DNA of 64,000 bases from NCBI RefSeq assembly GCF_013249015.1, contig NZ_JABRPL010000001.1, positions 730,318-794,317 on the forward strand, given 5' to 3'. The position numbers and the translations under genes are program-made. Positions 11,800 through 13,906 of this stretch are shown one piece after another; position 1 is the stretch's first letter, and the number at the start of each line of letters is the position of its first letter. The notes below the pieces were generated by a model, which saw only the letters and a program-made list of their open reading frames with translations, had not been told where the DNA came from and did not search any database. The stretch comes from Rathayibacter agropyri (GTDB lineage: Bacteria; Actinomycetota; Actinomycetes; Actinomycetales; Microbacteriaceae).

Positions 11800-12162
11800 T
11801 CACTCCGGAGTCGGCACGCGGATGATCAGACCCGCGGCGACGACGACGCCGACGGCCGCCAGGCTCAGCGACGACCACACCGCGTCGGGGAACGCGAACG
11901 GCACGACCGGATTCCAGAGCACCAGCACGGGCACCAGCCCGATCAGCCAGAGCAGCGTGCGGGCCTGGATCGCGAACCAGCCGATGACCGCGGCGAGGAT
12001 CGCGACCGGGTAACGGATGACGTCGTACGCATCAGTGCCCACCAGTGCGAGCCCCGCCAGCAGCACGATCGCCGCGAGGATTCCCGGCGCGAGTGCCATC
12101 CGCGCCTGGGCCCGCGAGGGGTAGCGGTCGGCGGACGCGCGGGTGCTCTTGCGGGTGCTCAC
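11800..12162 (-). CDS. Small membrane protein, DUF6804-like
   Basis: A 120-residue protein with a basic N-terminus and about four hydrophobic segments (roughly residues 25-42, 48-63, 66-82 and 95-113). The NPVVPF motif and overall layout resemble a small actinobacterial membrane family that I recall as DUF6804; this match is from memory. The GTG at 12162 is chosen because a TACGAT hexamer lies six bases upstream, giving a leaderless start. The gene is divergent from the CsoR-family repressor gene and shares its operator, so it may belong to the same metal or stress response. Function unknown. Confidence 0.7.
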   Translation of the reverse strand: MSTRKSTRASADRYPSRAQARMALAPGILAAIVLLAGLALVGTDAYDVIRYPVAILAAVIGWFAIQARTLLWLIGLVPVLVLWNPVVPFAFPDAVWSSLSLAAVGVVVAAGLIIRVPTPE

Positions 12163-12168
12163 CCTGCG

Positions 12169-12174
12169 ATCGTA
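12169..12174 (-). promoter_or_regulatory. Leaderless -10 element of the small membrane-protein gene
   Basis: TACGAT on the minus strand, with six bases before the GTG at 12162. The expected -35 region (about 12192-12197) falls inside the CsoR-type inverted repeat. Confidence 0.55.
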
Positions 12175-12182
12175 CGGGCGGC

Positions 12183-12201
12183 GATACCCCTCCCGGGTAT
12201 C
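12183..12201. promoter_or_regulatory. Probable CsoR-type operator
   Basis: GATACCC-CTCCC-GGGTATC, an exact 7-bp inverted repeat with a G/C-rich 5-bp spacer. This has the ATACCC...GGGTAT form known for CsoR-family operators. It lies between the divergent genes at 12162 and 12226 and covers the -35 position of both predicted promoters, so the repressor probably controls itself, its operon and the divergent membrane protein. Confidence 0.75.
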
Positions 12202-12213
12202 GTGAACGGCGCG

Positions 12214-12219
12214 TAGGCT
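12214..12219 (+). promoter_or_regulatory. Leaderless -10 element of the csoR-family operon
   Basis: TAGGCT followed by six bases and the GTG at 12226. The -35 region (about 12191-12196) is within the operator. Confidence 0.6.
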
Positions 12220-12225
12220 GAGCGA

Positions 12226-12504
12226 GTGATCGAGGACATCAAGAAGCGCTCGCTGCACCGTGCCCGCATTCTCGGCGGCCAGATGCGCGGGCTTGAGCGG
12301 ATGATCGAGAACGAGGACTACTGCGTCGACATCGTCACGCAGTCCCTCGCGATCCAGAAGTCGCTCGGGTCGCTGAACAAGCTGATCGTCGAGAATCACC
12401 TCCGCACCCACATCACCGCGATGTTTGAGGAGGGCGGCGACGCCCGAGAGGCCGCAATCGCCGAACTCGTGACGATCTTCGACCTCTCGCACAATCGTTC
12501 ATGA
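12226..12504 (+). CDS. CsoR/RcnR-family metal-sensing repressor with Cys-His-His ligand set
   Basis: A 92-residue all-helical DUF156 repressor. The family binds operator DNA as a tetramer and lets go when it binds Cu(I), Ni(II), Co(II) or, in FrmR-type members, formaldehyde. The ligand positions are Cys33, His58 and His62. Copper sensors normally have Cys-His-Cys, whereas nickel/cobalt RcnR has His-Cys-His-His, so this protein is closer to RcnR in its last position. Residue 3 is Glu, not His. The inducer cannot be assigned. The GTG start lies exactly where a leaderless transcript would begin. The stop overlaps the next gene by ATGA. Confidence 0.9.
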   Translation: MIEDIKKRSLHRARILGGQMRGLERMIENEDYCVDIVTQSLAIQKSLGSLNKLIVENHLRTHITAMFEEGGDAREAAIAELVTIFDLSHNRS

Positions 12505-13391
12505 GCACGGCGGCAGATCTCCTCGCCGCGGCGGCCGAGTGGCCGGTGCTGATCGACGGCGGCCTGGGCACCGAACTCGAAGACCGCGGCGCGGCCACCG
12601 GCTCCGCTCTTTGGAGCGCGCGCGTCCTCCTCGATGAGCCTGACCGCGTGCGCGACGCCCACCGAGCCTTCGCCGCGGCCGGTGCACGGGTGGCGGTCAC
12701 GGCCAGCTATCAGGTCTCGGTGAGCGGATTCGCGGCCGCGGGCCTTCCCGCGACTCTCGCCGAGCGGGCCCTCCGCGACAGCGTCGCGATCGCCCGGGAG
12801 GCGCAGGACGGCTGGGTTGCCGCCTCCGTCGGTCCGTACGGTGCGAGTCTTGCCGACGGCTCCGAGTACCGCGGAGACGACGGTCTCACGGTCGCCGAGC
12901 TCGCGGAGTGGCACGGCTCGCGGCTACACACGCTCGCCGCAGCGGCACCCGATGTCCTCGCCGTCGAGACCATCCCCTCCGTGCGCGAGGTGCGCGCCGT
13001 GGTCGCCGCCCTCCGCGGCTCCCCCGTCCCCGCGTGGATCAGCGTGAGCGCCCGCGACGGCACAACCGCTGCCGGAGAACCGCTCGCCGATGCATTCGCG
13101 GCGGCTGCCGCCTCTGACGACGTCCTCGGAGTGGGCGTGAACTGCTGCCCACCCGGCGACGTCGCGGAGGCCATCCGGATCGCCCGGTCGGTCACGGACA
13201 AGCTCGTCGTCGTCTATCCCAACAGCGGTGAGGAGTGGGACGCTCGCGAGCGCCGCTGGACAGGTGACGCCGCGTTCGAGCCCGCCCTGGTCGCCTCCTG
13301 GCGCCACGCCGGAGCCGGCCTGATCGGCGGATGCTGCCGCGTCGGCCCCGCGGCCCTCGCCGCGCTCGGCCGCAGTCTCGCGGAATCATGA
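12501..13391 (+). CDS. mmuM: Homocysteine S-methyltransferase (MmuM type)
   Basis: A 296-residue zinc-dependent methyltransferase that moves a methyl group from S-methylmethionine or S-adenosylmethionine to homocysteine, making methionine. It starts with the IDGGLGTELE motif and carries the zinc cysteines in GVNCC (near residues 212-216) and GGCC (near 276-279). Length is typical. It overlaps the repressor gene upstream and the macrodomain gene downstream by four bases each, so it is presumably under metal-responsive control. No MmuP permease is in the window. Confidence 0.92.
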   Translation: MSTAADLLAAAAEWPVLIDGGLGTELEDRGAATGSALWSARVLLDEPDRVRDAHRAFAAAGARVAVTASYQVSVSGFAAAGLPATLAERALRDSVAIAREAQDGWVAASVGPYGASLADGSEYRGDDGLTVAELAEWHGSRLHTLAAAAPDVLAVETIPSVREVRAVVAALRGSPVPAWISVSARDGTTAAGEPLADAFAAAAASDDVLGVGVNCCPPGDVAEAIRIARSVTDKLVVVYPNSGEEWDARERRWTGDAAFEPALVASWRHAGAGLIGGCCRVGPAALAALGRSLAES

Positions 13392-13906
13392 CCATCCTCA
13401 CCGCCGTGCGCGGCGATATCACCCGCGAGCGCGTCGATGTCATCGTTAACGCCGCCAACTCCTCGCTGCTCGGCGGCGGAGGGGTCGACGGCGCTCTCCA
13501 CCGCGCGGGCGGCCCGGAGATCCTCGAGGAGTGCCGGCGCCTGCGCGCGACGCGACTGCCCGACGGCCTACCCGCCGGCTCGGCCGTCGCGACCACCGCC
13601 GGTCGCCTCCCTGCCCGCTGGGTCGTGCACACGGTCGGCCCGGTGTTCTCCCGTGTCGAGGACCGGAGCGCCCTCCTCGCCTCCGCCTACACGGAGTCGG
13701 TGCGAGTCGCGCAGCAACTCGGCGCGCGCAGCATCGCCTTCCCGGCCGTGTCCGCCGGCGTCTACGGCTGGCCCATCACCGATGCCGCCCGGATCGCGGT
13801 CGACTCGGTGCGCACCGCCACCGCTCCCGACGGCGTGCCCACCGAGGTGCGCTTCGTCCTCTTCTCGGACGATGCGCTGGCTGCCTTCGCCGCAGCGCTC
13901 GACTGA
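13388..13906 (+). CDS. Macrodomain protein (ADP-ribose / O-acetyl-ADP-ribose hydrolase-like)
   Basis: A 172-residue single macrodomain of the MacroD/YmdB type. The ADP-ribose-binding and catalytic loop NAANSSLLGGGGVDGALH (from about residue 21) is intact, and the second loop has AGVYGWP (near 122-128). Members hydrolyse O-acetyl-ADP-ribose or remove ADP-ribose from proteins or nucleic acids. The ATG overlaps the mmuM stop. Its place as third gene of a CsoR-family operon is unexpected and does not by itself name the substrate. Confidence 0.92.
   Translation: MTILTAVRGDITRERVDVIVNAANSSLLGGGGVDGALHRAGGPEILEECRRLRATRLPDGLPAGSAVATTAGRLPARWVVHTVGPVFSRVEDRSALLASAYTESVRVAQQLGARSIAFPAVSAGVYGWPITDAARIAVDSVRTATAPDGVPTEVRFVLFSDDALAAFAAALD

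What the first reader, a model, noticed from the sequence alone, without database searches (positions are those of the whole stretch)
12163..12225. CsoR-type operator covering two divergent leaderless promoters
GATACCC-CTCCC-GGGTATC at 12183-12201 sits between a small membrane protein gene and a CsoR/RcnR-family repressor gene. Both genes have a -10 hexamer exactly six bases from the start codon (12169-12174 and 12214-12219), and the inverted repeat covers the -35 position of both. The sequence shows the geometry; CsoR-family binding to ATACCC-type repeats is established; the shared regulation is inferred.
Basis: partly seen in the sequence, partly recalled or inferred. Interest (0 to 1): 0.75.

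Follow-up and report, generated by a model that had tools for sequence, protein, structure and literature searches.

The report
Copper-repressor operator between two divergent genes
This is an ordinary on/off switch site at which a copper-sensing repressor most likely shuts off its own gene; whether it also controls the neighbouring membrane-protein gene is unproven, and the layout is not kept in every close relative.

Summary
GATACCC-CTCCC-GGGTATC lies at 12183-12201 in the 63-bp gap between a DUF6804 membrane-protein gene and a CsoR/RcnR-family gene, and both genes have a TANNNT hexamer six bases before the start codon. The sequence is unique in the window and fits the published type-2 CsoR box, TAC-N9-GTA.

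Comparison adds three points. (1) The box belongs to csoR: in 16 of 16 sequences (window plus 15 genomes) its centre lies 33-35 bp before the csoR start, but 27-64, 456 or 458 bp from DUF6804; it covers both -35 positions in 12 of 16. (2) Copper is the likely effector: of 55 such boxes in the 15 genomes, 28 precede copZ/copA or CPH-type P1B ATPases, and this is the only PF02583 protein in 11 of 14 genomes searched. The ligands C33-H58-H62 differ from classical C-H-C. (3) A leaderless csoR start is predicted in 41 of 41 relatives, Patescibacteria included.

It closely matches the published Bradyrhizobium csoR-cueA divergon: a new member of a known kind. Control of DUF6804 is plausible here but unproven.

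The parts
12183..12201 (.). CsoR box, type 2: GATACCC-CTCCC-GGGTATC; core TAC-N9-GTA at 12185-12199
   Evidence: sequence; unique in window; conserved in relatives; published type-2 definition, PMC3902906
12214..12219 (+). -10 hexamer TAGGCT of the predicted leaderless csoR promoter, six bases before GTG
   Evidence: 16 of 16 spacing 6; 41 of 41 relatives have TANNNT 6-7 bases before the start
12169..12174 (-). -10 hexamer TACGAT of the predicted DUF6804 promoter, six bases before GTG
   Evidence: 14 of 16 spacing 6, 2 of 16 spacing 9
12226..12504 (+). csoR: CsoR/RcnR-family repressor, 92 aa, likely ligand set C33-H58-H62
   Evidence: PF02583, E 4.5e-20; best solved-structure match 2hh7, named CsoR; C33, H58, H62 in 42 of 42
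11800..12162 (-). DUF6804 small membrane protein, 120 aa, no Cys or His
   Evidence: PF20619, E 2.6e-10; composition
12501..13391 (+). Homocysteine S-methyltransferase gene; its ATG overlaps the csoR stop by four bases (ATGA), so probably co-transcribed with csoR
   Evidence: PF02574; NF007020 above cut-off
13388..13906 (+). Macro-domain protein (O-acetyl-ADP-ribose deacetylase type), again overlapping the previous stop by four bases
   Evidence: PF01661; NF001664 above cut-off

Best explanation
The repeat is a type-2 CsoR operator. Metal-free CsoR tetramers bind it and block RNA polymerase at the leaderless csoR promoter. When copper binds (ligands C33, H58, H62), CsoR leaves the DNA and csoR is transcribed from its own start codon, together with the overlapping methyltransferase and macro-domain genes. 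In relatives the same repressor acts on copies of the box in front of copper-efflux genes elsewhere in the genome. Because the divergent DUF6804 promoter uses the same 63 bp, some repression of DUF6804 is possible here, as a by-product of the layout rather than as a conserved target. Shown: sequence, geometry, conservation, family, genome-wide box placement in relatives. Inferred: binding, copper as effector, transcription starts, operon transcription, effect on DUF6804.
For: PF02583 match. The box fits the published type-2 rule TAC-N9-GTA (PMC3902906). Box centre 33-35 bp before the csoR start in 16 of 16 (for L108 and L109 the script picked an off-target, and the true box is). Leaderless-type -10 in 41 of 41 relatives. 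Of 55 boxes with at most 1 mismatch in 15 genomes: 9 at the csoR orthologue, 17 at copZ/copA, 11 at CPH-type P1B ATPases, 3 at a second csoR (40 of 55), 5 at DUF4396, 1 at an MFS transporter, 6 at the start of one unnamed conserved gene, 3 unassigned. One PF02583 protein in 11 of 14 genomes; in 9 of these 11 a box lies before copZ or copA, so that one repressor is the only family candidate for those boxes. Among the 41 csoR relatives 15 loci carry a P-type ATPase (DKTGT), in 13 of 15 opening within about 100 bp of the csoR end. Best NCBIfam match is the copper repressor RicR (53.6 bits, below its cut-off of 175).
Against: No binding or expression data. The window's own genome is not held, so its copper genes were not seen; none of the copper queries matches elsewhere in the window. 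The third ligand is His, not the Cys of classical copper CsoRs. The RLXR DNA-contact motif of S. lividans CsoR reads R-A-R-I here, with Ile at the fourth position in 42 of 42. An intact TAC-N9-GTA box lies before csoR in 29 of 41 relatives only: in 6 none is seen (L013, L019, L020, L026, L028, L029) and in 6 it is degenerate (L008-L011, L021, L032). In G003, one of the single-CsoR genomes, no copZ/copA box was found at 1 mismatch.
Confidence: 0.82

Rival explanations
1. Dual switch: the box was selected to control both genes, and DUF6804 is a true member of the copper regulon.
For: In 12 of 16 sequences the box covers the -35 position of both promoters; the DUF6804 -10 hexamer is conserved. 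A published divergon has one box between two divergent genes and is derepressed on both sides in the csoR mutant (PMC5057107, passages).
Against: Distance to DUF6804 is not conserved (27-64, 456, 458 bp), whereas distance to csoR is (33-35 bp) (with L108 and L109). The protein has no Cys or His in the window copy; the 15 relatives have no Cys and at most one His. DUF6804 occurs in 206 of 299 family genomes (197 above cut-off) and 0 of 31 such loci checked have a box within 400 bp upstream.
Confidence: 0.3
2. The repressor senses Ni, Co, Zn or formaldehyde, as RcnR or FrmR do, rather than copper.
For: The HXXXH ligand motif is the one of RcnR; FrmR with E64H responds to Co and Zn, not to Cu, in cells (PMC4528141, passages). 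NCBIfam scores for FrmR and RcnR are present but weak.
Against: Those NCBIfam scores are far below cut-off (31.7 of 133; 29.2 of 138), and RicR (copper) scores higher, 53.6 of 175. No His near the N terminus (first His is H11). The boxes precede copper genes. Thermus CsoR with H-C-H-H binds copper among other metals (passage).
Confidence: 0.12
3. The repeat is a chance inverted repeat or a terminator hairpin with no regulatory role.
For: Perfect 7-bp arms with a 5-bp spacer occur 9 times in the window; the 3-mismatch shuffle test is not significant.
Against: Sequence and position are conserved across species; no terminator-like pattern; it lies upstream of both predicted starts.
Confidence: 0.02

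Closest known systems
csoR-cueA divergon of Bradyrhizobium liaoningense (PMC5057107, passages seen)
   Same: One 7-bp inverted repeat with 5-bp spacer (TATACCCCTACCGGGTATA) between two divergent genes; csoR transcript mapped as leaderless; both genes derepressed without CsoR.
   Different: There the partner is a copper ATPase and the box overlaps the -10 elements; here the partner is DUF6804 and the box lies at -35. Its CsoR is grouped with the C-H-C type; here C-H-H.
CsoR of Streptomyces lividans with type-2 operators at csoR and copZA (PMC3902906, passages seen)
   Same: TAC-N9-GTA box; separate boxes at csoR and at copZA-like operons.
   Different: RLXR motif there, R-A-R-I here; C-H-C ligands there (recalled for this species), C-H-H here.
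CsoR of Thermus thermophilus (chain 3aai; described in passages of PMC5057107 and PMC10457146; original paper not seen)
   Same: His in place of the second Cys ligand.
   Different: Low sequence similarity (E 2.6e-8); it has an extra N-terminal His ligand that is not seen here.
NreA of Mesorhizobium (PMC12724321, passages seen)
   Same: CsoR/RcnR-family repressor with leaderless transcript and a dyad operator in a very compact promoter.
   Different: Type-1 operator in the -35/-10 spacer, nickel effector; a search for 'divergent' in that paper gave 0 hits.

Membership tests
CsoR/RcnR family (PF02583) | Family profile over the curated cut-off | tested here: met
   72.3 bits against cut-off 22.8
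Copper CsoR | C-H-C copper ligand set | tested here: not met
   C33-H58-H62 in 42 of 42 aligned sequences; a His variant is reported for Thermus CsoR
Copper CsoR | Type-2 operator TAC-N9-GTA with G/C tracts | tested here: met
   TACCCCTCCCGGGTA at 12185-12199; kept in 14 of 16 and in 29 of 41 wider relatives
Copper CsoR | Boxes in front of copper efflux genes | tested here: met
   In relatives only: 28 of 55 boxes at copZ/copA or CPH-type ATPases; the window's own genome is not held
Copper CsoR | RLXR DNA-contact motif of S. lividans CsoR | tested here: not met
   R12-A13-R14-I15; Ile15 in 42 of 42. Chain 2hh7 (CsoR) reads R-L-K-T in the alignment, so the motif is not universal
Copper CsoR | Release from DNA by Cu(I) | not testable with these tools
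   Needs a binding assay
RcnR | N-terminal His ligand plus HXXXH | tested here: not met
   HXXXH present, but no His before position 11; the N-terminal-His rule is partly recalled
FrmR | HXXXE at helix 2 | tested here: not met
   HXXXH here against HXXXE. None of the four neighbouring genes typed is a formaldehyde gene; no wider search was made
Leaderless actinobacterial promoter | TANNNT 6-7 bases before the start codon | tested here: met
   Both genes here; 41 of 41 csoR relatives; the transcription start itself is not mapped

The most novel reading that the evidence does not exclude
In 14 of 15 relatives in which a P-type ATPase lies with csoR, the box overlaps the -10 element (centre 18-21 bp before csoR). 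In this lineage it sits 12-17 bp further upstream, at -35, csoR has parted from the pump gene, and the box now also covers a divergent promoter. A copper switch would thereby have taken a cysteine-free membrane protein of unknown function, and the csoR-methyltransferase-macro-domain operon, under copper control.
Probability: 0.25. Interest if true: 0.4.

Novelty: new member of a known kind. Interest (0 to 1): 0.22.

Why it matters
It predicts the copper regulator and box rule for the Rathayibacter group, for which one search of the open library (Rathayibacter with CsoR) returned a single paper, on Clavibacter. It shows that a neat shared-operator picture from one sequence need not mean shared control. 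It also gives natural test pairs: close relatives with the two start codons 59-72 bp apart and others with 492 and 498 bp between them.

Tried and rejected
Shared control of DUF6804 as a conserved trait: rejected as conserved, kept as possible here. DUF6804 as a copper transporter: no Cys or His in the window copy, so unlikely. Methyltransferase as a recruited copper gene: of 43 matches in 42 of 249 genomes I examined the 30 given as loci; 5 lie beside a box or a csoR (L197-L199 beside copA with a box between, L218 and L223 beside csoR), but 3 others pair with the macro gene without csoR (L202, L203, L209), so old neighbourhood is as good an explanation. Terminator hairpin and sigma-70 -35 element: none by scan of 12000-12400. 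Paper searches, open library only: DUF6804, 0 papers; homocysteine S-methyltransferase with CsoR, 25 papers, 20 listed, none on this regulator by title and start of abstract; Rathayibacter with CsoR, 1 paper, which mentions CsoR in Clavibacter; DUF4396 with copper, 1 paper, a passing mention. I ran no structure prediction.

The unfetched box was fetched; none of my 10 queries, nor the unnamed gene, matches there, so it stays unassigned.

Full report
What is there. Between the GTG of a minus-strand gene at 12162 and the GTG of a plus-strand gene at 12226 lie 63 bases that hold GATACCC-CTCCC-GGGTATC at 12183-12201. The plus-strand gene is a 92-aa CsoR/RcnR-family protein (PF02583); its best match among solved structures is chain 2hh7, named CsoR. 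The minus-strand gene is a DUF6804 protein of 120 aa. Each start codon has a TANNNT hexamer exactly six bases before it. Downstream of csoR lie a homocysteine S-methyltransferase gene and a macro-domain gene, each overlapping the stop of the gene before by four bases, so the three are probably one operon. The csoR protein is 99% identical to that of Rathayibacter iranicus, so the window is from that genus or very near it.

Is it more than chance? An inverted repeat of this length is not unusual by itself: there are 9 perfect 7-bp arms with 5-bp spacers in the window, and the shuffle test with three mismatches allowed is not significant. The sequence is what counts. TACCC-N5-GGGTA occurs once in the window. 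It matches the type-2 CsoR operator studied in Streptomyces lividans, TAC-N9-GTA around G/C tracts (PMC3902906, passages).

The box belongs to csoR. I took the 15 genomes returned as the genus of the R. iranicus genome and compared their gaps with the window. The csoR -10 hexamer has spacing 6 in 16 of 16. The box centre lies 33-35 bp before the csoR start in 16 of 16; in L108 and L109 the script picked a false best match, and the true box, seen, is at 33. TAC-N9-GTA is intact in 14 of 16; the other two (L120, L121) end in CTA. From the DUF6804 start the box centre lies 27-39 bp away in 12 of 16, and 52 (L121), 64 (L114), 456 (L113) and 458 (L115) bp away in the other four. The DUF6804 -10 hexamer is kept in all 16 (spacing 6 in 14, 9 in 2), including the two in which the box is about 457 bp away. 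So the distance is held on the csoR side and free on the other.

DUF6804 outside the genus. DUF6804 is found in 206 of 299 genomes of the family, 197 above the Pfam cut-off. I checked 31 loci (the 30 that one search gave as loci, and L098): none has a box in the 400 bases upstream of the match. These are the best-scoring matches, not a random sample. The window protein has no Cys and no His, and the 15 relatives have no Cys and at most one His. A direct role with copper is therefore unlikely, though regulation by CsoR in the short layout is not excluded.

Copper is the likely effector. In the 15 genomes, 55 boxes with at most one mismatch were found, against 3 for the backwards control. Nine are the csoR box itself (in the other six genomes it has more mismatches), 17 precede copZ or copA, 11 precede P1B ATPases with a CPH motif (11 of 11), 3 precede a second csoR, 5 precede a DUF4396 gene, 1 an MFS transporter, 6 lie at the start of one conserved gene (6 of 6 by tblastn; no Pfam match for the copy in L179), and 3 are unassigned, one inside an open frame, one beside no typed gene, one near a contig end. 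In 11 of 14 genomes searched with PF02583 the csoR orthologue is the only family member found, and in 9 of these 11 a box lies before copZ or copA; the genomes may be incomplete. In the wider set of 41 csoR relatives, 15 loci carry a P-type ATPase with DKTGT, and in 13 of these the frame opens within about 100 bp of the csoR end or overlaps it (L030 and L034 are further off); 13 have CPH and 2 (L032, L034) have CPD.

The protein. C33, H58 and H62 are invariant in 42 of 42 aligned sequences. Classical copper CsoRs have C-H-C; the His variant is reported for Thermus CsoR, which binds several metals (PMC5057107 and PMC10457146, passages). FrmR given a His at this place responds to Co and Zn, not to Cu, in cells (PMC4528141, passages), so the ligand set alone does not decide. 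The RLXR motif of S. lividans is R-A-R-I here. The best NCBIfam match is RicR, a copper repressor, but at 53.6 bits of a 175-bit cut-off. These departures are the main reasons for not giving a higher confidence.

Leaderless start. In 41 of 41 csoR relatives a TANNNT lies 6 (37 loci) or 7 (4 loci) bases before the start, against 9 of 3310 ATG/GTG in the window at spacing 6. Two starts (L033, L036) were extrapolated from the match. In M. tuberculosis 26% of genes with a primary start site are leaderless, TANNNT is found before 73% of primary start sites, and no -35 motif is found (PMC3898074, passages). The csoR transcript of Bradyrhizobium and the nreA transcript of Mesorhizobium were mapped as leaderless (PMC5057107, PMC12724321, passages).

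Where the box sits. An intact TAC-N9-GTA box lies before csoR in 29 of 41 relatives: in 20 its centre is 18-21 bp before csoR, over the -10 (Glaciihabitans, Salinibacterium, Galbitalea, the Patescibacteria loci and others), and in 9 it is at 33-35, over the -35 position (8 Rathayibacter and one Cryobacterium). In 6 it is degenerate (L008-L011, L021, L032) and in 6 none is seen (one Microbacterium, two Leifsonia, three Pseudoclavibacter). The position of the box therefore varies between lineages, and the divergent layout here is one outcome.

Verdict. The regulator, the box and the leaderless start are well supported by comparison and of a known kind; the nearest published case I saw is the csoR-cueA divergon. 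Shared regulation of the membrane protein is a fair guess for this strain but not a conserved feature.

Noticed in passing
L030, L032, L034, L038, L039, L040: Saccharibacteria/Patescibacteria assemblies carry a csoR 54-63% identical to this one, with a box (degenerate in L032) and a leaderless-type -10, with a P-type ATPase near by; possible gene exchange with actinobacteria, or binning error.
   Followed up: partly
L032, L034: The P-type ATPases after csoR have CPD where the other 13 of 15 have CPH.
   Followed up: no
L072, L070, L191, L176, L185: A DUF4396 gene starts 30-45 bp from the centre of a perfect CsoR box in 5 of 15 genomes; a candidate copper protein of unknown function.
   Followed up: partly
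L179, L173, L067, L063, L064, L076: A CsoR-like box lies at the start codon of one conserved secreted-looking protein gene in 6 of 15 genomes; no Pfam match for the L179 copy, and by eye ABC-transporter genes follow in L067.
   Followed up: partly
L178; L042: An MFS transporter gene has a CsoR box about 45 bp upstream in one genome of the 15, and a gene with a similar start has two boxes upstream in Cryobacterium.
   Followed up: partly
L197, L198, L199: A homocysteine S-methyltransferase gene is divergent from copA with a CsoR box between, in 3 of 30 loci examined.
   Followed up: partly
L061, L175, L182, L184: Second, canonical-type csoR genes lie near copper-type ATPases in three genomes (G004, G017, G018), in what look like copper islands.
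   Followed up: no
L003 4294-5105: The methyltransferase gene of R. tanaceti is matched in two pieces; left as is.
   Followed up: no
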